64,000 nt of DNA. Source: Owenia fusiformis. Taxonomy: Eukaryota > Annelida > Polychaeta > Sabellida > Oweniidae. Each line of letters starts with the position of its first letter. Within the stretch, counting starts at the first letter, position 1. The DNA lies in contig CAIIXF020000003.1 in the NCBI GenBank assembly GCA_903813345.2, positions 6,843,815-6,907,814 of the forward strand, given 5' to 3'. Below, piece by piece: positions 29,502 to 58,434 of the stretch. A program made the position numbers and the translations under genes. The notes beneath the pieces were generated by a model that ran no database searches, was not told where the DNA came from, and worked only from the letters and a program-made list of their open reading frames with translations.

Positions 29502-29886
29502 GAAATTGTCTACCCTTTGCATCACTTCTTCACTTCTTAAAAGAGAGCTCCGTCTTCACTCTTTCAAACTAAAATAAACCTGTGAACTCACCGCGCCAAT
29601 CAGTGTCGTCGGCCAAATTTGACTGACGTTCTATATATGGTCATTCCTTCTGACGTCATCGTTGAGCCAGGGATTGACCAATGACATGCGCATATTTAAT
29701 TAGAACGCTTTTGGCGTATGTTTCTTCAAGCTCACTGATTGGTGGAAGGTCAGCGCGTAGGTCAAAAGTGATTTACCCAAACTGTCACGGGTACCCGTCG
29801 TGGGGGCGGGGCTACTAAACTGTAATATGGTCTCTACTAGGCAGAGCGTAGTTTAACTAGACTCTGCACGCAGGGTAGAAATTGTC
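29502..29886 (-). mobile_element. Family B transposon, 367 bp, 9-bp TSD
   Basis: The element is 29511-29877. Its ends are TACCCTTTGCATCAC and, at the other side, TCTGCACGCAGGGTA. The flanking 9-mer GAAATTGTC is present on both sides (29502-29510, 29878-29886). There is no ORF. The interior carries CGCCAATCAG, TGACGTCATCG (CRE), TCTATATATGG, ATTGACCAATG and ATGCGCATA, so it looks promoter-like. Its opposite-orientation sister is at 31849. The 9-bp duplication suggests a Mutator- or Merlin-type transposase acting in trans, but the superfamily is not proven. Confidence 0.92.
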
Positions 29887-29967
29887 ATGTTCTGGGGAAA
29901 CTAGGTTCACGTTTCCTAAAAAGTACCATGGTCTACAGATGAGGGAACAAGCCTTATAAAAACACTT

Positions 29968-30108
29968 TTTGACATATTGTTATGGTCTTCAACTTTTTTA
30001 TGGATGGTGTTCAGCAGTTGGTGTTTGGATTAGTTTGATGGTTGGTGTCCGGAGTTTGGCATCTGTAACAAATGGCAGGTGGTGACATCTTGCAAGTTAA
30101 TGCCTTGT
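29968..30108. repeat. Family E repeat
   Basis: GACATATTGTTATGGTCT, ATCTGTAACAAATGGCAGG, GGTGACATCTTGCAAGTTA and ATGCCTTGT match 41109-41214 in the same order and orientation. The middle has GTTGGTGT reiterations. Class unknown. Confidence 0.75.
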
Positions 30109-30109
30109 T

Positions 30110-30652
30110 TTTGTTTATATTGCATGCATCAAAAGCAAAATATAAGAGAATTATCAGGGGGGCGTATTGTGGTTTAGATGATGGTAGGGTTCACTCAACC
30201 CGTAACCCTTCCTGCAGTGAGATCTCTCTAGGTTGAACAGATCTTGTCAAAACATTAATGACTGAATGAAGTAGACCCATAGGCAGATACACTGAAGGGG
30301 GAGGTGAGTCAGTCAGCAGGGAGAGAATTACTTCAGGGGCCCTCAATCTAATATGACAATTCAATTCAAAAGACACGTACAAGAAATTGACACTGCTATA
30401 CTAAGTGAGGGTTGCTGTCCGGGGTTGCTGTTTATAAATGAATCAACTGGAGATCAACCAACTTTACATGAAGATATGTTTATCTTTGAATTCTGGCTCT
30501 ATTTCCTTCCTAAGTTTGCAACAATATATTGAATTGTTTATAGTGCTTTGGTTGTGTTTTTCCTATGTTGCCTCATATTCTTAATAGACAGTTATGTGTA
30601 GAAATATTTGGTAGCATGTACAGGTATGTCATTCCCAACTCTTGAAATTACA
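30110..30652. other. Gene-free stretch
   Basis: No gene recognised. Confidence 0.4.
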
Positions 30653-30655
30653 GGG

Positions 30656-30818
30656 TGGTCATGACTTAAAATTGAAATTTCCATGGAAAATAGTGAAATT
30701 AGCAAGAAATAAAATATACAGGCATGTAGTTAATACTCTAAATTGTATAGAAATGCTAGAAAATCAGATAGTTCATTCAACTTTTGGAGAGAAATTGAAT
30801 GAAAAAGACATGGAGAGA
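30656..30818 (-). repeat. Family A copy, minus orientation
   Basis: GTGAAATTAGCAAGAAATAA, CAGGCATGTAGTTAATACTC, AAATTGTATAGAAATGCTAG and GGAGAGAAATTGAATG; the CAGACG end is missing. Confidence 0.85.
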
Positions 30819-31124
30819 GATTAATCTTAGATGCCGGGTTCTATTAATAAATGTGTCATGTGTTCGTATTAATTAAAGCAATTATGAAAGGCACACTTTT
30901 CATGTTCATTGAATTTTAATTCACTTTTAATGTAGCCCTTTAAAGATTTATTTCAATTTCCTTGACCTCTTCATTTTTTTTTTTTTGCTGCTGAAGAATT
31001 TTTATATTCAGAATTGTTCTGAGTTTTGCATTTCCACTGTTTGTTTTCTTAATTTTCTTTTCATTTTATGTGAAGACATGATATGTGAAGGGTTGCTAAT
31101 TGCAGAAGTGTGTCTCCTGACATG

Positions 31125-31298
31125 AAATATGCGTCTGCTCGGGCATACTTCTTGCCATTTCTCTCAAGAATTTGAATGAAGTATCTGATTTTCTTATATT
31201 TTTATACAATTAAGAGTGTCCACTACATGTCTATCTAGTTTATTCCTTGCTGATTTCACTCTTTTCTATACATTTTTTGATTTGAAAACATGTGATGA
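31125..31298 (+). repeat. Family A copy
   Basis: ATATGCGTCTGCTCGGGC, AATTTGAATGAAGTATCTGA, ATACAATTAAGAGTGTCCAC and TTTATTCCTTGCTGATTTC. Confidence 0.88.
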
Positions 31299-31752
31299 TG
31301 AGATGATAGAATTCAAGACAGGCCAAATCAAAATTCTGATCATTTTCTGACCCCTGATAACATCTAATATATCAGAGGAGTTTGAATTTGTTTGGGAGAA
31401 AATATTGCTCCCTTGCATTACCCTTTGAATCCATTTGAGAGCTAGACTCTGCTCTCTTCATATATTTTCTTGGCAATTTTTTATTTTCAAGAGAAATGAC
31501 AAGTAACACTTAAACATATTTTTCGACTGGTTGTAGTTATGTGTATATGTGATGTTGAGGGGGGTTGTAATGATAATTTGGGAAACTTATGCATTAATCA
31601 CAATTTTGTTGCTACTTGAAAAGTTAGAAACTCCTTTGATTCCTTTTTTGAAATGGCTTGCTATGCTGCATATTTGTTTCAACAGAATACCTATTAATTT
31701 CTTTTGTTTTATTGAAATACTGCCATTGGCTCACTAATTCAATCATATAATC

Positions 31753-32285
31753 TACAGAAAAACCTGTTATGTGGAACACCTCTGTAAGTGGAACATTTTT
31801 AGATCTCCATGATTAATTGACTTAATGTTATGAACCTCTATTAATGACTACCCTGCGTGCAGAGTCTAGTTAAACTACACTCTGCCTAGTAGAGACCATA
31901 TTGCTGTTTAGTAGCCCTACCCCCACGACGGGTACCGGTGACAGTTTAGGTAATAAATCACTTTTGACCTACGCGCTGACCTTTCTTCCACCAATCAGCT
32001 AGCTTGAAGAAACATATGCCAAATACGATCTAATTAAATATGTGCATGTCATTGGTCAGTTCCGGGCTCAACGATGACGTCAAAAGGAATGACCATATAT
32101 AGAACGTCGGTTAAATTTGGCCGACGAACACTGATTGGCGCGGTGAGTTCACAGGTTTATTTTAGTTTGAAAGAGTGAAGACGAAGCTCTCTTTTAAGAA
32201 GTGAAGTCAAACAAATGCAAAGGGTAATTAATGACACATATTTAAGAGGTATCAAAAGTGTTCCACTTATACAGGTTTCACTGTA
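31753..32285. mobile_element. Family C MITE split by a family B insertion
   Basis: The left half begins TACAGAAAAACCTGTTATG with GGAACACCTC. The right half ends GTGTTCCACTTATACAGG then TTTCACTGTA. The TA at each end fits Tc1/mariner-type insertion. Between the halves lies the family B element at 31849-32226. Removing it together with one copy of its 9-bp duplication leaves a continuous ~146-bp MITE, giving a clear order of insertion. Confidence 0.85.
31840..32235 (+). mobile_element. Family B transposon, 378 bp, 9-bp TSD
   Basis: Element 31849-32226, ends TACCCTGCGTGCAGAGTC and AAACAAATGCAAAGGGTA. ATTAATGAC flanks both sides (31840-31848, 32227-32235). It is highly similar over its length to the 29.5-kb copy in reverse orientation, including CGATGACGTCA, CCATATATAG and TTAAGAAGTGAAG. 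No ORF. Confidence 0.93.
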
Positions 32286-32289
32286 CTTC

Positions 32290-33058
32290 TTTGATGGTAG
32301 GACACAACTGTGAAGTAAGATGATCAGATTTATTGCCCACAATTACACGAATCATTACAACATAGTGAGCTAATTACTTCCTAATTGTCATTAAAATGTA
32401 ATTAAATCTGGTAGAACTTTATGGTAGGAGGATCAACCAAATATGGCATGTTTTCCGAAAATATTGTCTTACCTTTCATTTTCAATCTATTCTTAAAAGA
32501 AATCACAGGTGATTGGGAATGAATTCCTTGAAACCCAGATGCTTAATTTTGTTAACGAGTTTACCTGTGCGTACCTGTGGCTCATCTGGCTCAGGTAAGG
32601 GGACGTGTCAATATGTTGATGTATGATAAAAATGGTAACAAAGTACCTTATACTGTATAGTGTAAGGGGCCAATTTCAGTTTGTTTTGTTTAATATAATT
32701 TCAAAAAATATACTTGTCATAAACAATACTGAATAAAGGATTGTTATATGTCGATTTATATGTGAATATTACTCAAATGTTTGTACATGTATCATTGAAT
32801 GTCATATAAAAGACCAGAATGTCTCTATAGAATAAAACATCCAATAATTGTCATCATTCCTTATATGGAGGAGGGAGGAGGGGGTCAACCCAAAGTCTTA
32901 GGGAATTTGAGATATTGATATGGTCCCCGAGTTCAGGTAAATACAGGTACGGCAGGTAAGTGATATGAAGAACAGGTAACATTGTTTATTGTATTGATAG
33001 GATCTATCCAGGTGATGTGTTATACGTGCTAACCCATTTAGAGAATCTCATAACGGGT
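32290..33058. other. Gene-free stretch
   Basis: Exon-like scraps before GTAAGG (32557-32591) and GTAAAT (~32900-32937) are open but mutually inconsistent in phase. No gene is called. Confidence 0.4.
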
Positions 33059-33061
33059 ATT

Positions 33062-33220
33062 TTTTAAATTGTAGTTTTGAGTAGAAAAGAGCGAAATTGG
33101 CAAGGAATAAACTACAAGGTCATGAAGATGTTACTCTAAATTGTATAGAAATGCAAAAAAATTGAATAGTTCATTCAAATTTTAGAGAGAAATTGAGAGA
33201 ATTGACATGACCAGGTGGGT
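33062..33220 (-). repeat. Family A copy, minus orientation
   Basis: GCGAAATTGGCAAGGAATAA, TACTCTAAATTGTATAGAAA, GTTCATTCAAATTTTAGAGA and GACCAGGTGG. Confidence 0.85.
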
Positions 33221-33617
33221 TGTTATTTGAACTAATTTGATTTAGTTCACTTAGAACCCTGTAGTTTAAGCCAGGTGAAAATAAAAGGTGGTACAAATCT
33301 GGCCTGAAACATTAATTTTTATAAGTTATTTTGTCTATCTAATACATATATTTACTCAGTTATTATAAAGTCTAGTTTTTTATATAATCTTTCCACTCCA
33401 AGTGAATGTAAAATGTTGTTTTCATTTTAAACAAGAATAATTTCAAATAATATAAGTCCGTCAAAATAGTTCTAAAGAGTCCGGCACCATATCCCATAAG
33501 TTTCAGCTGGAATGTTTAATTTATTAGGGAATAACTTCTGGAAATGAGCATTATTTAACCATATTTTGTCTAAAATTCGTATTCTGTCTTCATGACGGCT
33601 TTACCTGTGAATCAATC

Positions 33618-33768
33618 TTCTATGGAATTCTCTCATTTTCTACTCTTTTTCACAATTATTTGAATGATCAGCACTACTTTCTTTCATTTATTTACACTTG
33701 GGTCTGTTTACTTTTTTCCTTGCAGATTCCTCTCATTTACAGTATATTCCATTTTAGTTTAACACGAC
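33618..33768 (+). repeat. Family A copy, diverged
   Basis: ATTTGAATGATCAGC, GGTCTGTTTACTTTTTTCCT and ACAGTATATTCCATTTTAG show the block order; similarity is weak in the middle. Confidence 0.45.
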
Positions 33769-34157
33769 TGGCTGACTTTTTTTTCTCATGGCTATTTTGA
33801 TTTCTTTGTTGTGTAATTGAATCCAGATGCTGCTTGTTCATTTGTTAAAGTCACACTTAAGGGATGTTTCTATTTTTCTCTATCGTTTTCAAATTATTTT
33901 AAGCAATCAAAGGTGCAATGTTTTAAGTTTATTTGACAGTTTTTTCTTTAATCTCTAACTACACTTTCAGATGTGTTTCATATTCTCATGTTTGAATTGT
34001 GTTTGGTTGGTTGTGCTGAGGTCATGTGGCATCAATTATATCCCATTGTCTCCTAAAGGAGAAGCCTCTCCCTTAGATAGAACACCCCGCCCCCAAAAAA
34101 AAGGTCATTGACCAAGTTGTCCTGTATGTTTCTTTATTTATATTGTGGGGATCTGAA

Positions 34158-34310
34158 GAAAATGTTGTCTCCTCTTACTTATTTCATTTCTCTCTAAAAT
34201 TTACACTCTCAGATTTTCTGATATTTTTATGCAAATTAGGATCCCAATTATGTGCCTTTTTACTTTATTCCTTGCTAATTCTACTCTTAAAAATATTTAA
34301 AATGCAATGA
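34158..34310 (+). repeat. Family A copy
   Basis: ATGTTGTCTCCTCTTAC, TTTCTCTCTAAAATTTACAC and TTTACTTTATTCCTTGCTAA with the CACTCTATTTTGC block lost. Confidence 0.75.
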
Positions 34311-34725
34311 TCAGGGACATTTTCCTTCTGGGCAAGCACTGATTCTGATTGGATGAAAATCTCTTTCATGTTTCCTGGACCATAACTAACAAAATCTCTA
34401 ATGAATCATCCTTAAATGAATAAACATTTAAACTGAGATAAGCAAAATCCCAAATAATCCCAAAGAAAACCCTATTTATTTTTCGGGTCACAGGCCCCTG
34501 GCCCACTCAGGTATAAGTCCACTTTAACAAATGGCAGGATATATCAAGATGAAATTTCACTTATGTTTTGCCTGTTAAATTTTTCAACTGGAACTTCTAT
34601 TTAATTCCACCTAGTCTCTTTTTGTTACCTTGGTTACATGCCAAAACAACAGTTGCCGTTTATGTTACATGTCTCAAAGAATAGCTGGTTTTACCTGCCG
34701 ACCCATAGCTAAAATAGCAGAGCTC

Positions 34726-34865
34726 ATATTTTAAAATGCAGAATAGTGAAGAAAAGGGTGCAAAATGCAAGGAATAAAATAATCAGGCATGTAGTTGATA
34801 CTTTAAATTGTATTGAAATTCTAGAAAGTCAGATATTTATGAATTTTTGAGAATTATGGAGCGTA
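34726..34865 (-). repeat. Family A copy, minus orientation
   Basis: ATTTTAAAATGCAGAATAGTG, ATGCAAGGAATAAAATAATC, GGCATGTAGTTGATACTTTA and AATTGTATTGAAATTC; truncated at its CGTCTGC end. Confidence 0.8.
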
Positions 34866-35630
34866 ATCAAAGCACCACCCATTGATAATTTAGAAATTGA
34901 TCCCTTCAGAAAATCATTGAAGTTACGTTTTTCATCTTGTCAGCATCAATTAAAAAATCAGTGAAATTTACTTCACATATTACACAACCCGGAAAATTAA
35001 ATCAGATAATAAATTTGTAAATTTACTGTGAATATTTGGTGTTATCGACACAGGAAGAAAAGAAATGTTTTGAATATTTTAAGGTTCGAGTTGCCCTGAG
35101 TTTCCTGTCTACCTGCCCTTTATACCTGTTCGGGTTGCCGTGGGAAACCTCCCACCTTCTTGCCAAAATCTTGTTCGCATCAATCACATAATGTTATATC
35201 TTTGACGTGCATCTAATGCAGCCTTACTTTGTAAATCCAAAACTATAATTCAGCATATTTGGAATAGACCAATAAGGATGCAGGACTCAAGTGTTTACTA
35301 AATACAAAACTTTACCCTAGTTTTACTATTTTTCATCAATGCTGTTCAAACTCTCTCAAATTAAGATAATTAAACATATATTTTTTATTTTTCCACATAT
35401 ACATTCAAACAATTAGTCCTCTCAGTTACCATAACCATTTTCTGACTTCACTTTCCTTTTGGGCCAGAGTACCTAGAATTTTTGTCTAATCTTTTTAAGT
35501 GGAGCAAAGTTTTAGAGAGTTGAAAAGTCAAGCTCTTTTGAATCTCAAATTATTAGAACATTGCATTATAAAAGAATAAATGTGATTGGTTGAATCCACT
35601 ATATGGTACAAATGATTACTACAACTGCTA

Positions 35631-36190
35631 GTTTCCATGGTAACAACATAAATCATTATTATATATATGCTTTTAAACTTACAATTGTTAATTGAGCTAC
35701 TCTATACTATTTATTATATCTGTGTTAAGAATATTATGTTTCCATAGCAATGATTTAGTATTTAATTACTATGGTTACACATCATTTAAATCAGTTTATC
35801 TAAGTAATTGTCAAAAGTATTAAACAATCTAAGGTTTTGGCTCAAACAAAATCTTTGAACATAATTTGAACACATTTTCAAATTCAATATAAACAACTGT
35901 ATAACAGATAGTAACCAATTTTGTTGAACTTATAATTTGGGAAACTGTGACATCTCATTTCTTCTCAGATATGAGATACCATTATGAGTTTGATTTTGTG
36001 AACGCAATACAAACAACAGAAATAACATTAAGATTGATTGCTATAGTAACCCTTTGCTTTTCTCTTAATTTGAGAGCAAATAAACTGAACATTTAGTCGA
36101 TCATATCAAATAAACAGGACAATATTTCATCAGATGCAAACAACTGTTTGTTACCATAGCAACAATGGAATGATTCATTGCTATAGTTAC
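35631..36190. promoter_or_regulatory. Cluster of RFX X-box-like motifs
   Basis: Six sites fit or nearly fit the X-box GTTNCCATRGYAAC: GTTTCCATGGTAAC (35631), GTTTCCATAGCAAT (35738), a reversed GTAACCATAGT (35768-35778), ATTGCTATAGTAAC (reversed, 36037), GTTACCATAGCAAC (36150) and ATTGCTATAGTTAC (reversed, 36177). The last two face each other around a near-palindrome. RFX factors bind such sites in cilia-related and other promoters; here the sites could equally be the remains of an old tandem repeat. No gene starts nearby. Confidence 0.35.
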
Positions 36191-36194
36191 CCAT

Positions 36195-38352
36195 TGTTAC
36201 ACCTGGTTTACCTTTGGTTGTCAAGTTCCCACAGTTAAACATCATTACTACTAAAAATATCTCGCAGGTAGGCTCGTTGGAAATACCTTGGAGATGAATA
36301 ATCGCGGTAAGGTGCACGAAGAATGCTCAGATTGCTCAGATCTCCGTGCAAACATGACTTCTAAAGAAAACTAAATTTCATCTTTATGATATTTTATATG
36401 CTGTTTGTGAATTATTTCTGTATGGTTGGATAATTGAATTGTTTTAGGTGATGATTGTTCTTGCACTGAAAAGTGTTTTCGCATTGAACATTTCAGCACT
36501 ACATATGCCGGTTCTTTAACTTTATTGTATACTTTAAATAGGATATTATATTGTATGATTTAAGCCTTGATCCGTGCTGTATCCATTCTATGTGGTATTT
36601 TTCAGCTTTTAATTGCTAAATAGTTTCTTTGCTTGTTGGATTCTGTAAAGTTGGACACTAGTAGCTATAATGTAGTGTTTTTGTGATAAGTGACTTGCTG
36701 TGGCCATGGTCCAATAATATTTGGTAAATTGCCTCCTTGGATAGGTTTTTAGAATTGCAATTTTTGGTATAAAGAGATATTAAAATTAATATTAAGGTTT
36801 TCATGTCAATAAACTACATTCCCGGTTTTACAGTATTTCCTTTTTTTAGCTTTTTTGAACTCAGACGAATTTAGCACTCTACTCATCCTCATATTGTTAA
36901 AAAAGTATTTACTAATTCTCAAATTGTTGCCATGCCAACATACAAGTATATTCACTTTCTCACACTTTCAAAGGCAGGTACTCTCTGTTAATTGACGTAA
37001 AACCGATTATCGCAAAAGTAAAAATTGAAAAAGGGGTAAAGTTAAACGGTTCCCACATACGTCTAACTTCAGGTGAGCACCTTCAAGAAAAATTCCTGAA
37101 AATCAAAAATTTCCAAATTTCACCTCAGATTTATCTCCTAAACCATGATTTCAACAAATATCTTAGAATATAATGTTTATTTTCTCAATATGGACTCCAC
37201 TTTCCATTTTCTGTCACTGAAATCGAATAGCATGATGATTAATGCTACATTTTTGCCTGGGATATGACAACTGCATTTGATAGGTAGTAAGTTTAGGTGA
37301 TTTTCACCTGTAGATTTTAGAACAAATGGAGAAATTTCGACCTTTATGTTGTTTAAGTTTGCATTCTGTACAGTTTCATCTAGCCTACCTTGCGATTATT
37401 TATAGTTTTTACTGGGTTCACTTTAGGTGTATAGAGCTCTGGAAACTTAACGTTCATTTGTAACGGAGTATTTGAAAAAGAGCTTCATCTTAACTCTTAC
37501 GATAAGAAAGAATCATTAGATTTCACCTTATAGGTAAATGTCAACCCTTTGGTGTTGGTTAAATTTCTTAAATCTTAAGTCTCTTAAAAAATAATTTCTA
37601 TGTTCTGAGATGGTATTTTTCAAAATGTCAACTCCTCCTTCCTTTACAACATTGCTTCTTAACCTCATTCTTCTTCTCCCGACCTTGTCTAGTATTGATG
37701 TCTTTATAATGTTAAAATAGTAATAATTTTTTCTTAAGACTCTTTTAAATCTCCCTTCTCCACAAAACTATTTAACCCTTCCCAAAATTAAGAATCTATC
37801 AACAGTCCTTGTTGCCTCACCATTCCGATTTCCAAATATGGATCCGAAACAATTATTATGTTTTTAAAGATTTGCTTTTTCCTTTGTCCAACTAGCATTC
37901 TTGCTAGTTCTGTACTTTATAAGTAAGTGAGGTAGCCTGAGATGGGATTATAAGTATGTTACTTACTGAGGGCCCCTTCCCTCATGAAACAGTTGGATAT
38001 ATATTATACAAGATGTACCTGTACGATATATTTATTATATGACGTCATATAACCTCACTATACAACTACACAGTACAAAAAAGAATTGTGCCCAAGATTA
38101 AAATTTCTATATGTTCTCATGAGTCTCAACATAGGAAAACCAGTCTTATCACAAAAATTAAAATTTTGCTACAGAGCCAGAAAATGTGTTAAGAGAAAAA
38201 TATGCTAAATTCAAATCCATCTTCTTGGTATATATCTGTAAGGAAAAAATGTAAAGACATAAACCATGGTATCTTTCTGCTTTTTAAGTAACTTCAAATA
38301 AAGATCACAAATCTCTGTGCTATCCTTGATATGTCTATGAAAAACCATGGTA
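36195..38352. other. Gene-free stretch
   Basis: More than 2 kb of AT-rich sequence with no recognised gene or named repeat. Confidence 0.5.
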
Positions 38353-38355
38353 TAT

Positions 38356-38534
38356 TACACTAAGACCTGTGTTTGTGGAACACCATTGATACCCCTAAAA
38401 GGTGTTCCAACTTATGAGGTGTTCCACTATCAGAAGTTCATTTAGTTCATCACCTTGTCATGGGACTCTGAATTGTTCCGCTTTTGAGGTGTTCTATTTA
38501 TAGAGGTGTTCCACATTACAGGTGGTTTTCTGTA
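38356..38534. mobile_element. Family C MITE, 179 bp
   Basis: TACACTAAGACCTGTGTTTG on the left and ACAGGTGGTTTTCTGTA on the right, both joined to GGAACACC/GGTGTTCC blocks, with internal AGGTGTTCCAACTTATGAGG. No coding capacity. Confidence 0.75.
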
Positions 38535-38556
38535 TTTTGTAGTGTTGAAGTTTTTA

Positions 38557-38775
38557 TTAGTTTTTTATAAAATGTTGTATATGTTGGGTTTTAGTCTTTA
38601 TCTTTGCAGCTTCTTGATTCTCTTTAGCTATATCCCTTGCTACCTCTAAGTTAGTCTGTATATCTTGTAGTCTGTCTGTGACTGTACTTTGTCCCATACT
38701 TACTGGTACCATAGTATCTAGTGGCATAAGGGGTTCCTTACCATACAACAAGTTAAATATGCAATCATTACAATT
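38557..38775 (-). pseudogene. Ty3/Gypsy-like integrase remnant
   Basis: The minus-strand frame reads CIFNLLYGKEPLMPLDTM and continues into VTDRLQDIQTNLEVARDIAK with a Lys-rich end before a stop. The LLYGKEP..PLD motif followed by an RD-A-E helix is typical of the C-terminal edge of the integrase core in Ty3/Gypsy-type pol proteins. No other pol domain, LTR or primer-binding site is seen around it, so this is a small degraded fragment abutting a family C MITE. Confidence 0.55.
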
Positions 38776-38779
38776 GTTC

Positions 38780-40475: not shown

Positions 40476-40477
40476 TG

Positions 40478-42757: not shown

Positions 42758-42849
42758 GTGTAATATTACCCTTTGCATTCGTTTGACTTCACTTCTTAAA
42801 AGAGAGCTTCGTAGTTTAACTAGACTCTGCACGCAGGGTAGTGTAATAT
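42758..42849 (-). mobile_element. Family B mini-element, 74 bp, 9-bp TSD
   Basis: Element 42767-42840 keeps only the two ends: TACCCTTTGCATTCGTTTG with CTTCTTAAAAGAGAGC, and GTTTAACTAGACTCTGCACG with CAGGGTA. GTGTAATAT flanks both sides (42758-42766, 42841-42849). The promoter-like interior of the 370-bp form is absent, so ~70 bp of ends seem sufficient for mobilisation. Confidence 0.93.
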
Positions 42850-46672: not shown

Positions 46673-46674
46673 GG

Positions 46675-46848: not shown

Positions 46849-46849
46849 T

Positions 46850-48165: not shown

Positions 48166-48169
48166 AATA

Positions 48170-48975: not shown

Positions 48976-48997
48976 CAACCAAAGGGTAGTAGAGCCT

Positions 48998-49101
48998 GTG
49001 GATCCCTACCCTGCGCGCAGAGTCTAGTCATAAACTACGGAGATGGAGATGGAGCTCTTTTAAGAAGTGAAGTCGAACGAATCCAAAGGGTAGTGGATCC
49101 C
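48998..49101 (+). mobile_element. Family B mini-element, 86 bp, 9-bp TSD
   Basis: Element 49007-49092, ends TACCCTGCGCGCAGAGTCTA and ACGAATCCAAAGGGTA. GTGGATCCC flanks both sides (48998-49006, 49093-49101). The interior is reduced to a short GGAGATGGAGATGGAGCTC repeat. Confidence 0.93.
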
Positions 49102-49104
49102 ACA

Positions 49105-49665
49105 ATGAGAAAATAAAAATGTACTCTTAAATAAGAACCGCTAAACAAACATTTAATTTGTAACAGTCTGTTGATCAATGCCATGTAAATACAAAATTAG
49201 GGTTCACCTTGTCTTTTTGTTATGTGTTCTTTTCTTTTAGTTCATTGAAAGAATTGTTCCAAAAGTTTACCCTTTTCAAGTCTTTATATTGGCGACCTCT
49301 AAAAAATTTATTTTCGCTTTTCTAATAAGAAATTAATCTTTCTTTGCCCTATTATGTTAGGGCGAACAAAATAAAGCTCACCAATCAGAATTGCACTTTT
49401 CGAAATTTGTGCTTTCATTAGTACTGGCACAATATACAAAACAAGTATTATTTGGGTCATGGACCATGAACATCAAAACTAAAATTCTAGTCAGAGGCCA
49501 GTTATCATTTTTAGCCTACGTCAGACTCAGGGTACATAAAAGGGTAATTAATCGAAGAATATGCGATTGTTTTTAATCTGTTGTTCATAATCTATTGTTA
49601 CAAATGGCATTCACCTTCGATTCACCCCATATGACGTGAACTAAGAATAAGATTCAGTCCGAAAG
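49105..49665. other. Gene-free stretch
   Basis: No gene recognised. Confidence 0.4.
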
Positions 49666-49667
49666 AA

Positions 49668-49870
49668 AAATGTCGTCTGCTCGTCCTTATTTCGCGCCAT
49701 TTCTCTCAAAAATTTGATAAAAGTGTTTTGTTTTCTTGCATTTCTATACTATTTAGACTATCGATGCCATTCCTGTTTTTTCAATTCGTTCATAATTTTA
49801 CCCTCTTATGCTAAATTATGCATTTTAAAACATGGCCACCATGGGTTTTTGTTCTTGGATTCCTAATAAT
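49668..49870 (+). repeat. Family A copy (full length)
   Basis: AATGTCGTCTGCTCGTCCTT, ATTTCTCTCAAAAATTTG, TTTCTATACTATTTAGACTA, TGCATTTTAAAACATGGCC and the GGGTTTTTGTTCTTGG extension. The last clear copy in the window. Confidence 0.88.
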
Positions 49871-49871
49871 G

Positions 49872-50630
49872 ATTTCCTATCAAAATATGATTTTATACAT
49901 TTAGATAAAACATAGCCTTCCATAATTTTGCTCATAATATCGGATTTCATTTTTTGATATTTGGAGTTTGTCAAAAAGAATCAGGTCAAGATTTTTAGCA
50001 GGTGTACACGAGGAACAGAATTTGATTTTGAAAATATTTATTTTTGTTTGAATAAAATGTAAGAAAACGCTGTCTGTTATTTAGTCCGTTCAACCATGTT
50101 AAATGGTTTACTTATTTGTTTTGATTTATCATTTTAATGATGATTTATTCATCATTTTATTGATAAGATTTACTTTTTGTGTATATTCTATTCCATACCC
50201 CTTGTATTAACATCGGGTCTTATTTTATTAAGAAACCTTGCCCTAAGTGAACTTAAAAAAGAAAATAGTACGACCCACAAACAGGTGATATTTATTTATT
50301 TATCATTATTTACATATTTAACTACATGCTAATTTCTTATTGTGTGCTAAATTTATTTCTCTATATGAGTTTTAGTTTACAGAAAACCTTGACCTTAGTC
50401 ATTTAACTTTAAAAAAGGAGCCCGACCTAAGAGCAGGTGAAATCTAAACACCTGGCAATATCGATGAAACAATAAAAATATTTTTTGAATAAATCAATGT
50501 TGAAAAGGTAGTTTCATTATCCATAAACATAATGAACAAAATTATATTTTAATGTGTTCAATTAAGAGTGTAATTAGTTGAAGTTTGTCATAAATTCCTC
50601 TAGTCAATGGATGACGTCATAATGGTGATC
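49872..50630. other. Gene-free stretch
   Basis: AT-rich. AGAAACCTTGCCCTAAGTGA at 50231 and GAAAACCTTGACCTTAGTCA at 50381, each followed by GACC and CAGGTGA, form a ~150-bp imperfect direct repeat (50231-50290 / 50381-50440). Confidence 0.45.
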
Positions 50631-50687
50631 ATGCCTATTTCACGCAATTTTCGGAAATTTGAATACACTGCGTGAATTTATACTACT

Positions 50688-51090
50688 TACATTTAGTGCA
50701 ATATATGTATTTATTATGCAATATGCATCTCACATTTAGTGCAATATATGTATTTATTGTAATATTTGTTTTCAACCATATACATTGTGTATTTCACATT
50801 TAGTGCAATATTCATATTTATTGTAATATTTGACCATAGGCAACATGCTACTCACATTTAGTGCAATATATGTATTTATTATGCAACATGCTACTCACAT
50901 TATTAAGTGCAATATATGTATTTATTGTTATATCAGTCTTCGACCATATGCATGATACAATTCACATTTAGTGCAATATTTGTATATATTGTAATTTTTG
51001 ACCATATGCAACATGCTACTCTAATTTAGTGCAATATATGTATTTATTATGCAATATCCATCTCACATTAGGTGCAATATATATATGTAT
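50688..51090. repeat. Composite tandem repeat of 43- and ~60-bp units
   Basis: Eight units begin CACATTTAGTGCAATATATG. Short units (~43 bp: TATTTATTATGCAATATGC) alternate with long ones (57-66 bp that add TTTGACCATATGCAACATGC). A short-plus-long pair of ~105 bp looks like the higher-order unit. Confidence 0.85.
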
Positions 51091-51526
51091 TGACAATATG
51101 ATTCCATAAACTGCTTATTTATGCCAAACTGATTAATCAGAGTTGTGAATTTTTATCATTGGTTATAAATGTATAATTCTTTACCAGAGACATTCCAGAG
51201 ACATTATATGTCTCTGTCTTTATGAATGTTGACCCAAGCTGCCCATTGGGGGTAGTAATGGGTGACACTCAGATATAATGTATACTGTGTCTCATAAGTC
51301 GGCACCGGCTGGTGATGTTACAAAATGTTGTTTTTATTATGTATTTTATATGTATATTGTAATATCAGTGACACAAAAATCACTATTTTAAATTAAACTA
51401 AAACTAAACTAAAACTTTAGCGTTTCTTTTGAAAATTTTGCTATTTTGGGTTATATAGTCAGCATTTCTTTTGAATAACAAATACTCCGATATACTAACA
51501 TCGATTAGTGTTCTATTGATTGTATG

Positions 51527-51699
51527 CCGGTGTAAAAGGGTAGGAGGTCCTATCAAATTATGGTCCTACTTTCCATTGATTTATATGGTGACCTAAATAC
51601 AACTCCTTCCCTTATTATCGTATCCACAATCAGGGTCAGTAAGGGCCTATAAGAAAGGGGACCATAATCCCCAGGGGACCATCATTTCTTTTACACCGG
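51527..51699. mobile_element. 173-bp MITE (CCGGTGTAAAA ends)
   Basis: CCGGTGTAAAAGGG at 51527 mirrors TCTTTTACACCGG at 51687-51699. Inside, GGTCCTATC / GGGGACCAT blocks extend the inverted symmetry. No ORF; target duplication unclear. Confidence 0.65.
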
Positions 51700-51701
51700 T
51701 T

Positions 51702-52150
51702 TTGTGATTATGACCACAGTATGTATTGGGATTATATAATCAGTCTAGGCTCAATACCCAAAGAATGGTATTTGTATGGTTTATGGGAGTTTAACAAACA
51801 TATTTTCACCTGTTGCTATTTTGTTTTAAATAACAAGGGTAATCGGAGCACTTCCTGGTGTAAAACGTTCCTTCATTATTCACGGTGGCTATTTTAATTT
51901 AAAACCCTTCGTAAAATTTCATGACATTCCTATATTTTACGATAAGAAAATTGAAGCGGGTTTCGCCAGAAAATCGTTTAAGCAAATTGTGACACCTTAA
52001 TTGTATTTAGGTTTTTGATTTAGGCGAGGAATGGCGCGAAATTAGCATGGGCAGACGATGTAGGAAGCGTTATGGGAAGGACGATAGAATGCTGATTAAG
52101 TGCGGGGCGGACTTGAGCAAAGAGGGACACAAATGGGTAGTGTGCCTTAA
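51702..52150. other. Gene-free stretch with family A scrap
   Basis: GAAATTAGCATGGGCAGACG at 52039-52058 is the terminal part of a minus-oriented family A copy without the rest. Nothing else seen. Confidence 0.45.
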
Positions 52151-52153
52151 AAG

Positions 52154-52281
52154 CTATTCGGTCCCGTAGTAACCTTCGATCTTGCTGTAAGTGAAGTCAT
52201 TCCGGCACATTAATTGGTTCAAATTGATCAGGTGGTCGTGTAATGCATGATGGGAGTTTGCTTGACAACTTGTTGTTCTTC
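52154..52281 (-). other. Minus-strand exon-like segment
   Basis: GACAATAAATACTTTACAG is a fair acceptor at 52282. After it one frame reads GRTTSCQANSHHALHDHL then INLNQLMCRNDFTYSKIE to a stop at 52154; another reads KNNKLSSKLPSCITRPP to an earlier stop. GC is higher than background. No domain or donor. Confidence 0.2.
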
Positions 52282-52411
52282 CTGTAAAGTATTTATTGTC
52301 CGCCAGGCTTAATGTCCGCTTAACTAATGTCAATAGGCCCCCAGACCCAAAATGCGTATATGTTTGTAAAATTGTACAAAATAAATAAATTGTACTTAAG
52401 TCATTCTTTCC

Positions 52412-52450
52412 TAAGTCTCTTGTCGCCCCCCCCCCCTCCACCCCCTCCCT
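52412..52450. repeat. C-rich low-complexity tract
   Basis: A run of C at ~52427-52436 followed by TCCACCCCCTCCC. It drives proline-rich open frames in the overlapping ORFs. Confidence 0.85.
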
Positions 52451-52779
52451 ATGCGACTCCCAAATGTGCTAGAGAGAATGGGGGGTTGGGTCAACACAAG
52501 ACTGAGATACAGACTATACAAACCCGGGAACCGGTATACAAAAATGACACGTATAGGACGACATGTGGTCGTGGCGGTCTTGGGATATAAATTCAAAGAA
52601 ACACAAAATACTGATTTACAGTAGTTCATAGTTCACTTGAAACTTTATTAAACTCATAATGACTGCTGCGTAACACTATGATAAACTTTGAACTATAATT
52701 ATGGTTTTATATGAAGGGGTTGATAGGTCATCCCCCTCTATTGAAGATACCGGGGAGCGGGTAATGAGGGGTAGGTGTA

Positions 52780-53101
52780 TTATATAAGAAACCCGGGCCA
52801 ATATTGCACCACTGAGCACCTGTCCGTTCTGTTGCAATAAGTAGTACTTTTGAAATATTCTGTCAAGTTTTCTGCCCCTTTAGCTTTATTTTTTTCAAAA
52901 TAAATATTGTATGAACTCAAGTATTCAAAAAATGTTCCCTTCTTCTTGACAATTTTTTGCATTAGTTTCTGCATTAGTGTATAAGACGGTTGCAGAATTT
53001 GAGAATTTCCTCTTCTAGGTATACATTTGATGTGAGTATCATCATTGGTGAAAATTTGATTTGAAAATGAAATTCCTTGTTTCAAGATATTGCAATGCAT
53101 G
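52780..53101 (-). other. 106-codon open frame behind acceptor
   Basis: ATGCAAAGCGTTTCAG (acceptor-like) is followed by C-ATG and a 106-codon frame: MHCNILKQGISFSNQIF, a KKK-rich middle with GTFFEYLSSYNIYFEKNK, and CNRTDRCSVVQYWPGFLI before TAA. It is among the longest non-repeat open frames here and has balanced composition. I recognise no family. An internal GACAG|GTGCTC could be a donor. It may be an exon or a relic of an inserted gene. Confidence 0.25.
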
Positions 53102-53104
53102 CTG

Positions 53105-54045
53105 AAACGCTTTGCATATTTAAAGAGAATTTATCAAAATATTCAAAATGTCACAAAACTGGAAATGTCTTCATTATTTCGTGCCCAGGCATTTTACAGG
53201 GAGGTATAAATATTACCACATTCTATAATGGAAGCCATTTTCAAGAATTATATTCTCGTCAATGAGATTTTAATTGCCCTAACAGGTTAATGTGGAATGA
53301 AAGTTTATTGTATGAAAACTTGAGGGGCCGTTGAGTATAGATGCCCAACAATAAAAGGCTATAATTCAAACGTGAAGTATAAAAGCAGGTGGAACAGTGT
53401 GTTTGTCCCATGATTCTCCAGCCTTTCATTTTCAAGTGTCAATATCAATTGGTTCAGAATGATCACGTGGTATATATTTTAAAGTCGGGTGTCATACCTC
53501 TTTTGTATACACAGGAGACTGAGTGTCTGGGAAGAGGAATATTATTTCTGAAAAGAATAAAAGATGATAAAAGCAAAGTGTGAGGTTTTACACTTACTCC
53601 TTCAATACAAGTTATCTCCCTTTAGAAAAACACACCCTTCATGAGAACACCCCTGGAGAACACCCAATTTCTCTCTTTTAAACTATCACCATGCATGCTC
53701 GTAACTCTAAGCACAAAACATATCGTTTGTGTATATTATCGATATCATAACTTGATTGAGTTCTAAATGGCCATTTCGGAGTTTAGTTTTGTTAAGGGTA
53801 GGTTACATTCCTTATTGACTCTAGCAAGCAATATGTCTTCGATATGTTTACCTACTTGAAGTATATCTATAGAAGTTATAATAGTCGTGATCATGATTAC
53901 ATTCTTCTAATGCTCCATAAAGTCTAGGCACTAAGAGATCAAAAACATAAACCCAAACTTTTTATTGTCTGCGAAAACTAAGTAACAACCGACTATCAAT
54001 ATATAATAATGTTTGCTTGTTTGTTTTGGTTTTGCTTTTTCGGAT
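53105..54045. other. Gene-free stretch
   Basis: GAGAACACCCCTGGAGAACA near 53643 resembles family C GAACACC motifs. No gene seen. Confidence 0.4.
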
Positions 54046-54049
54046 TTAC

Positions 54050-54414
54050 CTATGATCGGTTTGTGGTCGAAGGAGAACTTGAAAAGCGGGAGCACAATAG
54101 AGTATTTCAAACGGAGTCATAGAGTCTGGTTGGAATACTTTGCGGTCAGGCGTCAATAGAATCTTCACACTAGCACCTTGCTTCATATCAACACAGAACA
54201 AAACAGCAATACATTTATTAATTTTTATTTTGACAAGTTTATGCTGTTTCGGTTCCGTGTTTTGTTGTTCTGTTGTTTGTGGGGTAAAATGAAGTTGTTG
54301 GGTTGAATGAGCGTTGTATTCATTATCTGGCCCACAGTGTATTTCACCTGTCCCCATGTCTCTATGTCTGCTTTGTGAACATTGTTCATTGAAGTTCCAC
54401 AAATTCCACACATA
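54050..54414 (-). other. Candidate minus-strand exon, 365 nt
   Basis: The acceptor GGCATATTGCAG and donor GATCATAG|GTAAAT enclose a frame open for its full 365 nt. It reads YVWNLWNFNEQCSQSRH, a Gln/Thr-rich middle (STQQLHFTPQTTEQQN), a Lys-rich stretch and ILLTPDRKVFQPDSMTPFEI then LYCAPAFQVLLRPQTDHR. Composition is protein-like and GC exceeds the flanks. It is the longest non-repetitive open frame in the window. No known domain is recognised. Confidence 0.3.
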
Positions 54415-54419
54415 CTGCA

Positions 54420-55215
54420 ATATGCCTATACACAGTAATGAACCTTGCTGTACACCGCCAACGGTTGTCCTCGTCTAATTATACACGTTACGTCACCACC
54501 AGAGATCATCAAATGCCTCTCCAAAATCAACATGTACGCTATTAGAATTTCACTGTAAACAAAAAGTAATTTCCCTATTGGATTTAATTTCTAATTACAT
54601 ACCGTGGTTACACATGCTCAAAAAGTGTTTTTCTTACTAAATACTAATTAAATTGTCAATCAAGATGTTGTTAAATATACATTGATTTAATTGAAAATCG
54701 GAATGAATTCCCTTATAATCATTGGCATCGTATATCATTAAGTATATGTTGTAATGTAATTGAAGAGAAATAATTGTTTTATCGATTAGTGTACCAAGGA
54801 AGGCATGAACGACATTTCAAAAAACGATCGCAAAACCTTTTTATATTTATGGAACACCTGACTGTATTTCCCGCTAAAGATTCATTGTTTTCATCAACTA
54901 CAAAACGAGACAGGTGAATAGCCTGTTTACATTTTCATCAACATTTTATTATTTATTAATGATGGCCAACAACATGCTTTCTCTTTTTATAGATCCTTCA
55001 AACTAAATATCCTGCCGCGTCCAATATTTTATGTTTTGTTTCCATGGATACGCGTTGCCCATTTGTTTAAGCCAGAAAATTAATGTTTTAAAATAGTTGA
55101 AAATATTTATACGAAATTTTTTGATTAATTCCAATGTCTTATGCGTATCAATTTTGATATGTTTCTAAAAATTGTTCAGTTTTAGATTTTAACAAAACGT
55201 AATACTAATTTCAAA
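54420..55215. other. Gene-free stretch
   Basis: AT-rich; nothing recognised. Confidence 0.45.
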
Positions 55216-55217
55216 TT

Positions 55218-55386
55218 TTAAAAATCAAGATCGGGTATCACTGCTATGGCTGCTATAGAAAGCATCGAAATACCCTCCCCTGGCCTGGACCAAGGATGAT
55301 GATGAGAGTGAGCAGTACCACCATGGTCATCATTGCCTTTTAGAATTTCCGGACAATTAGAATTTCCTTGCCTAATTCTACACTCC
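55218..55386 (-). other. Candidate minus-strand terminal exon
   Basis: GTTTGTCAAACTTTTTGCAG is a good acceptor. The frame after it reads ECRIRQGNSNCPEILKGN, a His-rich DDHGGTAHSHHHPWSR and GEGISMLSIAAIAVIPDLDF before TAA at 55218. No poly(A) signal follows closely. His-rich loops occur in zinc transporters, but nothing else supports that family, so I leave it unnamed. Confidence 0.25.
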
Positions 55387-55391
55387 CTGCA

Positions 55392-56698
55392 AAAAGTTTG
55401 ACAAACATAAGCTCCCTCTCGGACCAATGTTAGAATTTGCCTTGTTATGTTTGACGATTTTTACAAATGCAGCTCATTTTCCAACCTATTGTTATTTAAA
55501 ACAAGATTCTGCTTTAAGACATACTTTAATTAACATATTGCTATCAAGTAGGGCTTCTGACTAGGCCTACCAACCTTAATATGGAGAGGGTGTAGATTTA
55601 GGCCGAGAGCGCAGTCTTTTATTTTCAGTTTTCTGTAGATCGGAATGTGATGATAAGAATCAGGTTTTGAAAGATTCATTATTAAGATGTTCAACCACAA
55701 TGTGGCGAGATATCGGTGTATATGTTACCTCGATCAATATTTAATCATCTGAATTATAAATTAAACTTTTTGAACAGGAAGAAAAGACTTAATTTTGGTT
55801 TCTCAATCGTGGTCCTTCTTTTAACTTAAACACTTAGTTTCATCATCAGTAGCAATTTCAAATATCAATTCTCCCTGTGTATACGTACTTATCATTGATT
55901 GGGGCTCTTCTTTGATTATTTTTTCTGCATCATTTTGTAAGGTATTTTATGTAAGGGCCTAATACATATTGACGACACCTGTACGATCAATTTCTTTAGC
56001 TCTCTCAAGCAACAGGTTTTTCCATTCTTAACTAATTGAAAGCCAACTTCACTTGAAATTAATTAGAAAAAATCGAAGACGGAATATATGCATCTCATTT
56101 TGGACATATGTGGTTTAGAACGTGTACATTAGAGTGCTTGAATAATTAAATTGAAATTAAAATGAACTTGTTGTAAAATCCTTTGTATGGACATGTATGG
56201 ATCCATGGTTATGTGGGTAACAGTTGTTGCAAAAAACAAAAGGCCAATTAGCTACTTAGCTTTCTCATACGACACACCTTTTTACTTCTTACGTATTTAT
56301 TACTGAGATTTTTAATGTTAAGAAATTAGACCGTTTTTTATAAATTGCTGTCATTACAATGTTGGATTAATCTTTTCATTTGTATTAGAATCCGAACACT
56401 TGTGCTGATCCATGTATGGATTTATTCATGTTTTCAAACTTGTATCATGATTGAAATACAAATGAGGTATCAAATAATGAGATGCAAAAAGTGATTTCTT
56501 TTTTATGAATTATTGAAAATGCAATCAATTTGTCAGGTAATTGAATTCAGTAAAACGATGATACGCTGTATTGTTTTCATATGGTTTCTAGGGGTTCCAA
56601 TTATTTCAATTGTGCATTTTCACTTTGGTTTCTTTTGATCTATAGACTTTAATAGTGTATTATCAATATTCTTTAAATCCTAAAAAATTGTCTATTTT
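55392..56698. other. Gene-free stretch
   Basis: No gene recognised. Confidence 0.45.
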
Positions 56699-56709
56699 TA
56701 ATTTTGCAA

Positions 56710-56772
56710 GTCACGTGACTGAAATAAACCAATCATACATGACATTTTAAGATATACGCATGCGCAGTTGAT
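56710..56772. promoter_or_regulatory. E-box / CCAAT / NRF1 cluster
   Basis: AAGTCACGTGACTG (palindromic E-box), AAACCAATCATAC (CCAAT box) and TACGCATGCGCAGTTG (NRF1-type) lie within 63 bp. The order resembles the promoter-like islands at 11.0 and 21.3 kb. A CCAAT box plus NRF1 site suggests a promoter or a transposon-borne one; no clear gene starts next to it. Confidence 0.35.
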
Positions 56773-56774
56773 CT

Positions 56775-58345
56775 TTGACACATCTGAATGGAAGTGGTAT
56801 TATTTCTTCGCCATTAGAACAATAATTAGCAACTAGCGTTATTATTTAATTAATTGGATGAACAGTTGTGTTATATGGGCGGTACCTTGAAGCAATAACG
56901 GCTCTTAATTACAACGATCGTAATTGTATCAGTTAAGATATTAAGATCTGGCGAAGTGTGGAATTTAGATGAAACTCTGAGCCTAATAAAGACGCCCATG
57001 GGCCGGTAGCCATGAGGGGGGTGTTCCAAAAATTCTTTCAGAATGATGCAGTTTTCACCATTCTGAGTGATTTTGGGCCAGAATTGTAAAACGTGAACCC
57101 CCCTGGATTTCTTTTTAAAAAGTGGCATTTTTGCATAGCAACAAGTAGATAAGAGTTAACCCTCTCTGATGAAAGTTGCTGTGTGGTTTCATCATATCAC
57201 CTTGACAATGTGTGCATCACCATGACAATATGTGTAATCACTTTGCAGTATATTGTCCAGCCACCGTTAATAGTCGATGGGACAGCTACTTATTCAGATG
57301 ATGTCTCCATTAACAAGTTGTTAACTAACTGTTTAAATAGCATCTTTTTGTTAGATGTGGGGGGTATAGTGGCCCTCCGTGGGTATTATATCAAGTGACT
57401 TTAATTAATGCTTTTACAACTGGATGTCCATTTATCAAACAGGTTATAAAGAGGATAGATTGCTCTAAACATATTTTTGGGCCCATCACACTTAGGAGTT
57501 TGACAAAATGGCGTTTTCAAATTTTACTTCTGGACGCATCTTGATTTATGTTGATGAAAGTTGATAAACTCTTTTCAAAACCACATTTTAAGATGTAATT
57601 TTACATGTAGATTTCAAATACGACGTTTGCCTGAATTTTGAATGACGTAAATCAAGATTCTTCTTCTCACATCTTGTCTATTAGGCTTATGTAAAATCCG
57701 ACTGAAAGAAAAGGTATGTCCCTTTACCGAAAAAATCAACATATTTCAAGTTCTGATAACATGTCAGATTTGAGCCGAATGTGTTTCGAAAAAGGGACCT
57801 GATTTTCGATTGGGGTCTGTACGATCTGTACACTAACAGAAACACTGGACGCAAGATATAATTTTGTGAGAACAACTGTTATGTAAAAATAGCCTCTCCA
57901 TCTACCATGTCTAAAACAGCGTGTTGTATGTCAGGAACACAGTTACAGAGCAGGTTTATAATAAAAAGCTAATATAGTACCTTTCATCACAGTCTATTAC
58001 ACACATTTCATGATGATAATTATGATCGAATAACAAACCACAGGTTAATTGTATGAATATTTAATGTAACCACTGAGAAAATTGTCTTAATTTTTGTTTT
58101 GAAGTTGTATAATTGTAGTTACTTTTGCATGTAAAGTAATGGGTCGGGAATGTTGGACTTTTTGTAATTATCTAAAAAATTGCACTTATATGTAATAAAG
58201 AGTTCTTTTTATCCTTTTTAGTACCTGTTGATTTCGCATCACCGATAAAGAGTGATAGAATTTTACTGCTAGCGGTTTGATCTCAGAGTGTAAAAGATGA
58301 TAGCTGGCTGAAAATCGTGTCCGTTTAAATTACAAACTGGCTTAA
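56775..58345. other. Mostly gene-free stretch
   Basis: A 29-nt exon-like piece at ~57681-57709 has an excellent pyrimidine-rich acceptor (CTCACATCTTGTCTATTAG) and AAAAG|GTATGT donor, with LCKIRLKEK in one frame, but its phase does not follow candidate exon 3. ATCAYCWTGACAATGTGTG is tandemly repeated near 57195-57245. Confidence 0.4.
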
Positions 58346-58434
58346 AAAGTATTCTACCCTGCGCGCAGAGTCTAGTTAAACTAAGCTCTCTTTTAAAAAG
58401 TGAAGTCAAACGAATGCAAAGGGTTAAAGTATTC
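58346..58434 (+). mobile_element. Family B mini-element, 71 bp, 9-bp TSD
   Basis: Element 58355-58425, ends TACCCTGCGCGCAGAGTCTA and AACGAATGCAAAGGGTT (last base changed from A). AAAGTATTC flanks both sides (58346-58354, 58426-58434). The two ends are joined directly through ACTAAGCTCTCTTTTAAAAA. Confidence 0.92.

What the first reader, a model, noticed from the sequence alone, without database searches (positions are those of the whole stretch)
29502..58434. A DNA-transposon family with perfect 9-bp target duplications and 71-86-bp minimal copies
Five elements with TACCCT..AGGGTA ends, at 29511-29877, 31849-32226, 42767-42840, 49007-49092 and 58355-58425, are each flanked by a different exact 9-mer (GAAATTGTC, ATTAATGAC, GTGTAATAT, GTGGATCCC, AAAGTATTC). 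The two termini differ beyond TACCCT (TTTGCATTCGTTTGACTTC versus GCGCGCAGAGTCTAGTTAA), so these are not simple long TIRs. Three copies are only the two ends fused, which suggests about 70 bp is enough for transposition. Exact duplications point to recent activity. A 9-bp duplication fits Mutator or Merlin superfamilies, but the termini do not match a family I can name.
Basis: partly seen in the sequence, partly recalled or inferred. Interest (0 to 1): 0.78.

Follow-up and report, generated by a model that had tools for sequence, protein, structure and literature searches.

The report
DNA transposon gutted in place
This is a numerous, non-coding DNA transposon that duplicates 9 bases where it lands, and many of its copies seem to have lost their middle after landing, leaving the two ends joined by repair scars that differ from copy to copy.

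Summary
All five elements have exact 9-bp target duplications and two unlike ends sharing a short TACCCT terminus. In the 498-Mb genome the left end occurs 4,111 times and the right end 2,327 times at up to 3 mismatches. Sampled copies fall into two size classes, about 378 bp and 64-100 bp.

Short copies mostly differ in their junction: 31 distinct in 35 drawn without regard to it. The breakpoints are pinned just outside two internal ACTCT motifs that resemble the termini, and the joints show trimming, microhomology or filler, as in end joining. One insertion present in 12 duplicated loci is 367-380 bp long in ten and 86 bp in two, same site and target duplication. I therefore read the short copies mostly as scars made in place from full copies, rather like solo LTRs. 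Cutting by the transposase at these pseudo-ends is inferred, and some spread of short copies is not excluded. No transposase was found: none of five Mutator-type loci examined has these ends around its frame, and four partial Merlin hits were not examined. The superfamily stays open.

The parts
29511..29877 (+). long (367-bp) copy, L to R; TSD GAAATTGTC at 29502-29510 and 29878-29886
29558..29847 (+). interior of that copy, between the inner sites CTTC|ACTCTTT and its right-hand counterpart (here with one substitution, GAGCGTAG)
   Evidence: sequence; breakpoint positions
31849..32226 (-). long (378-bp) copy, R at left, L at right; TSD ATTAATGAC at 31840-31848 and 32227-32235
31879..32176 (-). 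298-bp interior that short copies lack; bounded by C30|A31 (R, 31878/31879) and C50|A51 (L, 32177/32176)
42767..42840 (+). short (74-bp) copy, junction CTTC[GT]AG with 2-nt microhomology; TSD GTGTAATAT at 42758-42766 and 42841-42849
49007..49092 (-). short (86-bp) copy with a changed right end (GTTTATGACTAG) and a complex junction; TSD GTGGATCCC at 48998-49006 and 49093-49101
58355..58425 (-). short (71-bp) copy, own junction CTT[A]GTTT; ends AGGGTT; TSD AAAGTATTC at 58346-58354 and 58426-58434
235..313 (-). old relative: right end and adjoining interior of a long-type element, 68-71% identical to the two long copies; in 226-1100 no second copy of its 9-mer and only a weak, two-error left-end match at 727

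Best explanation
A family of non-coding (non-autonomous) cut-and-paste transposons of about 378 bp, moved by a transposase whose gene was not found, inserts with a 9-bp duplication (shown). Each end carries the end motif twice, reading inward: at the terminus (ACCCTTT in L, ACCCTGC in R) and again inside (ACTCTTT at L51, ACTCTGC at R31) (shown). After insertion the interior between the inner motifs is lost in place: the DNA is broken at or just outside the inner motifs (C50|A51 and C30|A31), the 298-bp interior is discarded, and the two stubs are rejoined by end joining with trimming, microhomology or filler (breakpoints and scars shown; one insertion seen in both states; breakage inferred). 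The likeliest cutter is the element's own transposase taking the inner motifs for ends, an abortive nested excision (inferred). The short copies are thus mostly scars, a DNA-transposon counterpart of solo LTRs, rather than a proliferating 70-bp MITE.
For: Breakpoints: 80 junctions resolved from 77 of 79 short-copy events keep L to at most base 51, 71 of them to 44-51, and R to at most 33 (its printed R numbers are one too high, corrected). None of the 134 events is 101-168 bp. Inner motifs: scanned inward, the only internal ACYCT from R is at 31, and from L at 51 plus one inside the R end; both inner 8-mers match the termini 6/8, reached by 2 of 20,000 shuffles. Three of six partial deletions have one endpoint within 1 nt of an inner site (L056, L066, L154). 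Diversity: 31 distinct junctions in 35, 72 in 100. In place: 12 loci share flanks and TSD GTATACTAG; ten are 367-380 bp and two, a 99-100% supported clade in the unrooted tree, are 86 bp. Interior with no outer end at its left edge not seen: 0 of 15 places lacking a perfect L and 0 of 16 with an unusual preceding base (L041). Long form is old: a 68-71% relative in the window has right end plus interior.
Against: The duplicated-insertion tree is unrooted and nearly star-like, so long-to-short is favoured by simplicity, not by an outgroup, and it is one insertion only. No transposase is known. The L inner 8-mer is only one of three equally good internal matches to the L terminus (also at 138 and 293). 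The inner motifs also sit at the loop edges of two inverted repeats, so a structural cause fits as well. Free interiors were not seen; the right edge was not searched. Some junctions recur at different insertion sites (eight and six events, partly because I chose them); fillers GTCTT and GTCT recur 15 and 10 times in 100, and only five GTCTT copies lie within 0.7 kb of the passenger sites. L029 and L096 share a right-end variant. Templated fillers are not significant in the clean subset (p = 0.41, 11 fillers).
Confidence: 0.55

Rival explanations
1. Abortive gap repair: the long copy excises at its outer ends, the gap is refilled from the sister copy, synthesis stops early from both sides, and the two partial ends are joined.
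For: Known in outline for internally deleted DNA transposons (recalled; the listing holds papers using the term). It acts in place and leaves the TSD, as, and gives end-joining scars.
Against: It needs synthesis to stop near 50 and 30 nt again and again, although nothing I found but the inner motifs marks those places; endpoints are pinned within a few bases in most of 80 junctions and one-sided in three partial copies.
Confidence: 0.17
2. Structure-driven loss: each inner motif pairs with an inverted copy nearer the end (AAAGAGA..ACTCTTT at L; GCAGAGT..ACTCTGC at R), and replication slippage or a hairpin nuclease removes the interior.
For: The inverted arms can be read in the sequence and the breakpoints lie at the inner loop edge of both.
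Against: Arms of 6-7 bp with 11-13-bp loops are weak (not folded here); cuts would be expected at both loop edges, but 71 of 80 L endpoints lie at 44-51; fillers do not suit simple slippage.
Confidence: 0.11
3. One reading: the short copies are an active 70-86-bp MITE that multiplies by itself.
For: Exact TSDs; some simple junctions recur at different sites; fillers GTCTT and GTCT make up 15 and 10 of 100 listed, and GTCT was read at three different duplications (L039, L092, L093); L029 and L096 share a junction edge and a right-end variant.
Against: 31 of 35 unselected junctions distinct; ten other fillers of 4 or more bases each seen once in a 100-of-347 listing, which by a Poisson estimate bounds siblings at about one per copy if GTCT and GTCTT are set aside as self-templated; some repeated junctions are passengers of duplicated host DNA.
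Confidence: 0.09
4. Pre-cut end fragments: a transposition complex holding only about 50 bp of L and 30 bp of R inserts into the target, and the open middle is then joined.
For: Explains perfect TSDs with a new junction at each site and fixed breakpoints.
Against: The insertion at GTATACTAG exists in both states, so there the change followed insertion.
Confidence: 0.04
5. Reverse order: short copies are ancestral and the 378-bp form arose by capture of the interior between L50 and R30.
For: The interior begins exactly where short copies end; L114 has other DNA in that place. No long copy of the older right-end variant is held, but the draws were anchored on other ends.
Against: A diverged relative already has right end plus interior; some short copies keep interior bases next to R (AGTGTAG, GTGTAG); the both-state insertion would need an exact gain.
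Confidence: 0.04

Closest known systems
MITEs (miniature inverted-repeat transposable elements)
   Same: Short, non-coding, many copies, exact TSDs.
   Different: Terminal repeat is only about 6 bp; the short forms look mostly like individual in-place scars, not copies of one deletion product.
Internally deleted Ds and P elements
   Same: Internal deletions or fillers; Ac/Ds and P ends carry repeated internal transposase-binding sites, and the two P ends differ in spacing (PMC3260210 and PMC7776569, passages seen).
   Different: There lengths and contents vary widely (P 0.5-2.8 kb); here the breakpoints are pinned to two internal copies of the end motif; TSD 9, not 8.
Mutator-like elements, including forms lacking TIRs
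   Same: TSD 8-11 bp; some groups lack TIRs, e.g. Curupira with 9 bp (PMC6446971, passages seen).
   Different: No MULE transposase found between these ends in the five loci examined; related MULE loci here show repeat-rich ends of their own.
Solo LTRs
   Same: An insertion loses its interior in place and keeps its TSD.
   Different: Solo LTRs arise by recombination of identical repeats (recalled); here unlike ends are joined with variable scars.

Membership tests
Mutator superfamily (MULE) | TSD of 8-11 bp | tested here: met
   90 of 134 events exact 9 bp, 9 exact 8 bp
Mutator superfamily (MULE) | MULE transposase in an autonomous relative with the same ends | tested here: inconclusive
   8 PF10551 places; 5 fetched with about 3 kb on each side, none carries these ends around the frame (L085 merely has a short copy downstream); 3 not fetched; distant exons may be missed
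Mutator superfamily (MULE) | long terminal inverted repeats (absent in non-TIR MULEs) | tested here: not met
   shared terminus about 6 bp, then unlike; not excluding, as non-TIR MULEs exist
Merlin superfamily | TSD of 8-9 bp (recalled) | tested here: met
Merlin superfamily | IS1016/IS1595-type transposase with these ends | tested here: inconclusive
   4 partial PF12762 hits of 45-55 profile positions; surroundings not fetched
hAT and P superfamilies | 8-bp TSD | tested here: not met
   9 bp in the large majority of duplications; 8 bp for Ds and P
MITE | short non-coding element in many copies with TSDs | tested here: met
MITE | short form propagates as such | tested here: inconclusive
   most unselected junctions distinct; a few simple or self-templated ones recur

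The most novel reading that the evidence does not exclude
The transposase of this family treats internal copies of its end motif as ends and cuts there in place, so that the element removes its own interior without reinserting it and leaves dead stubs; 50 of 100 copies with a perfect left end on contig 1 carry such a scar. This would be self-inactivation built into transposon ends, and perhaps a thousand natural break-repair outcomes at one defined site.
Probability: 0.4. Interest if true: 0.75.

Novelty: new variant of a known kind. Interest (0 to 1): 0.55.

Why it matters
MITEs are usually explained as a chance deletion that then multiplied. Here the small form seems to be made again and again, in place, at a fixed pair of internal sites. 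If so, counts of small non-autonomous copies can measure abortive excision rather than transposition, and 'minimal copies' with perfect TSDs are no proof that the minimum is mobile. The junctions would also record how this germ line repairs breaks at one defined place, in many copies.

Tried and rejected
Nested transposon with a life of its own: not supported. The left edge of the interior always adjoined outer L sequence where I looked (15 of 15, two with badly decayed L; 16 of 16 plus L041, L147 with only part of L). The right edge was not searched, and most of the 1,081 places were not examined. Autonomous long copy among end-to-end pairs: none seen. L041 (2,046 bp) and L111/L122 (1,447 bp) are 378-type copies with another insertion inside; L041 has no frame above 105 aa in the element; frames were not listed for L111/L122, and L119 (588 bp) was not analysed. 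MULE and Merlin loci as carriers: not found. Distance versus motif as the determinant of the R breakpoint, using the right-end variant 2 bp longer: not decisive. Templated fillers as a polymerase-theta signature: the first test over 30 fillers gave p about 1e-6 but was inflated by base changes in L counted as filler; the clean subset gave p = 0.41, so I do not claim it. Rfam: no match in the window. Six copies with one odd junction looked like amplification but share flanks, so they are passengers; the same holds for 5 and 2 of 8 direct-join copies.

Age trend: of 100 perfect left ends on contig 1, 50 are short, 46 have interior (32 of these judged by the interior pattern alone) and 4 have neither or foreign DNA (my tally), while genome-wide 1,081 interiors face 4,111 left ends. 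This fits progressive loss but is confounded by unequal pattern lengths.

Sampling limits: several short copies were fetched because of their junction (L086-L100, L127-L140, L156-L160, L193-L200), so only L001-L059 and the window copies count as unselected; the clean subset still holds some selected ones. From the event table I left out L014, L015, L021, L060, L081-L084 and L122 beforehand, and its size limits left out L041 and L111/L122. There the two 86-bp loci of the GTATACTAG insertion sit inside its long group, and L114, with a foreign interior, counts as long. Two short copies could not be resolved (L006, L078); the method's anchor also sets a floor of 40 on L.

Changes made on rechecking: I had written that most GTCTT joins are passengers; only 5 of 15 lie within 0.7 kb of a place. 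I therefore lowered the best reading from 0.60 to 0.55 and raised the MITE reading from 0.07 to 0.09; the other odds were scaled so that the list sums to one.
Full report
CHECK. The copy at 58355 ends AGGGTT. I call the end TACCCTTTGCATTCG... L and the end TACCCTGCGCGCAGAG... R. The genome holding the window has 498 Mb in 525 contigs and no name. With up to 3 mismatches the 28-base L end occurs 4,111 times and the 29-base R end 2,327 times; the reversed-pattern controls gave 0. Of 54 elements drawn by one end, 41 have an exact 9-bp duplication, 9 one mismatch, 4 none. Among 134 insertion events in held loci, 90 are exact at 9 bp, 9 at 8 bp, 1 at 7 bp and 34 show none at zero offset. An empty-site query made from L061's flanks matched across the joint in all 40 listed places, so that duplication is real.

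SIZES. Sampled copies are mostly either long (most often 378 bp) or short. Of the 134 events, 48 are 340-385 bp (one of them, L114, with a foreign interior), 79 are 64-100 bp and 7 lie elsewhere: 169, 189, 249, 250, 294, 322 and 588 (limited to 56-619 bp). An exact gapped pattern finds 1,329 short copies, passengers included. The left edge of the interior, 37 bases with up to 3 mismatches, occurs 1,081 times. Of 100 perfect L ends on contig 1, 50 are short, 46 have interior (three of these with a deletion or extra DNA) and 4 have foreign DNA or no partner.

JUNCTIONS. The short copies are not one deletion product. In the first 100 listed there are 72 different junction strings; in 35 drawn without regard to the junction there are 31. 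In 80 junctions from 77 events L is kept to at most base 51 and R to at most base 33, although 298 bases of interior were available. Of 347 matches that keep both CTTC (L50) and GTAG (R30), 100 rows were listed (two pairs of rows overlap): 21 join directly, 14 insert A, 13 insert T, 1 inserts C and none inserts G alone; 15 insert GTCTT and 10 GTCT. A and T are the next interior bases at L and R, so the break seems to lie within a base or so of C50|A51 and C30|A31. In a clean subset of 46 junctions, 11 are blunt, 20 have 1-2 bases of microhomology and 15 have filler. These counts include passengers: 5 of 8 direct joins examined are one insertion carried by duplicated DNA and 2 another; 5 of the 15 GTCTT copies lie within 0.7 kb of a place in a repeat of at least 91 copies, and the flanks of most others were not read.

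WHY THERE. Read inward from each terminus, the motif next to the break is a second copy of the end motif: TACCCTTT at the L terminus and CACTCTTT at 50; TACCCTGC at the R terminus and CACTCTGC at 30. From R no other internal ACYCT exists; from L the only other lies inside the R end. Both inner 8-mers match 6 of 8, which 2 of 20,000 shuffles of the interior reached at those places. By plain 8-mer match the R site is the single best in the element, but the L site ties with two others (138, 293). Three of six partly deleted copies have one endpoint at an inner site: L056 at L50, L066 and L154 at R31 (for L056 the far endpoint is uncertain, the near one is read from the sequence). A one-sided break is what cutting at either site alone would give.

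IN PLACE. One insertion (TSD GTATACTAG) occurs at 12 duplicated loci. Ten hold 367-380 bp and two hold 86 bp with the junction CTTCGTCTT-TGTCTTC-GTAG, same position and orientation, same duplication apart from one base change in one copy. The flanks align on both sides for part of the fetched length; L183, L189, L190 and L191 leave the shared block at different points. In a tree of the shared block the two short loci form one clade (99-100%), the rest is star-like and the tree is unrooted. One event therefore separates the states. Loss of the interior is simpler than an exact gain of the family interior plus removal of a filler, but this is not polarised by an outgroup. The interior was not found alone where its left edge was examined. 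An old relative in the window at 235-313, 68-71% identical, already has right end plus interior.

DO SHORT COPIES MOVE? Ten fillers of 4 or more bases, other than GTCT and GTCTT, each occur once in the 100-of-347 listing. If each had s siblings, 10 x 0.29 x s siblings would be expected in the listing; seeing none bounds s near 1 (Poisson, 95%). I set GTCT and GTCTT aside because they copy the adjoining L bases and could recur by the same repair route; if they are instead siblings, short copies do move. L092 and L093 with L039 share GTCT at three different duplications.

MECHANISM. Shown: the two size classes, the duplications, pinned breakpoints, unlike scars, one insertion in both states, and the inner motif copies. 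Inferred: a double-strand break at or near the inner motifs, made by the transposase taking them for ends. I put about 0.55 on cutting at the inner motifs followed by end joining, with the transposase as the likeliest cutter, 0.17 on gap repair and 0.11 on a structure-driven cause. That free interiors were not seen needs explaining: inner ends may be cut but not joined to a target.

WHAT IT IS. The transposase remains unknown. Eight MULE places exist; five were fetched and none carries these ends around its frame. Three of them are related to one another and show repeat-rich ends of their own; L085 merely contains a short copy. Four partial Merlin hits were not examined further. Nine base pairs argues against hAT and P. 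Paper searches (listings seen, with passages read in PMC7776569, PMC3260210 and PMC6446971) showed internal deletions and gap repair in general, and no title or abstract start among those listed describes deletions pinned to internal end motifs. That is a statement about those listings only.

Noticed in passing
L060 (G000:C9:2066500-2069200): Seven 81-bp short copies in tandem, most at 231-bp spacing, each with the same CCATTGAAG duplication: a single insertion that became part of a satellite-like array.
   Followed up: partly
L086-L091, L169-L179: A dispersed repeat with at least 91 copies of one flank carries a short element as passenger, in 78-, 82- and 88-90-bp versions, some differing at the junction itself.
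   Followed up: partly
L114 (G000:C1:22954710-22955260): A 361-bp copy whose interior is unlike the family's, between L47 and about R19, with a one-mismatch duplication: possible capture of foreign DNA at the junction.
   Followed up: no
L112 and L126: L end kept to base 50-51, then unlike DNA; no R end with a matching duplication in the 10 kb (L112/L121) and no R end in 0.5 kb (L126): possible misjoined breaks.
   Followed up: partly
L041:4317-6040: Another element with long inverted ends (AGGGGCGATCCATAT...) nested in a 378-type copy, without long frames.
   Followed up: no
L081, L082, L083: MULE-type loci with open frames of 599-617 aa and repeat-rich ends; L081 and L082 are about 97% identical over 3.3 kb, so a likely recent Mutator family.
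   Followed up: partly
window 61127-61911: About 19 copies of a 40-bp tandem repeat (TGGTGATATAACATGG...), giving long spurious open frames.
   Followed up: no
window 31879-32176: The interior contains CRE-like TGACGTCA, CCAAT-like and G+C-rich boxes beside a TATATA stretch, as a promoter might; motifs recalled, not tested.
   Followed up: no
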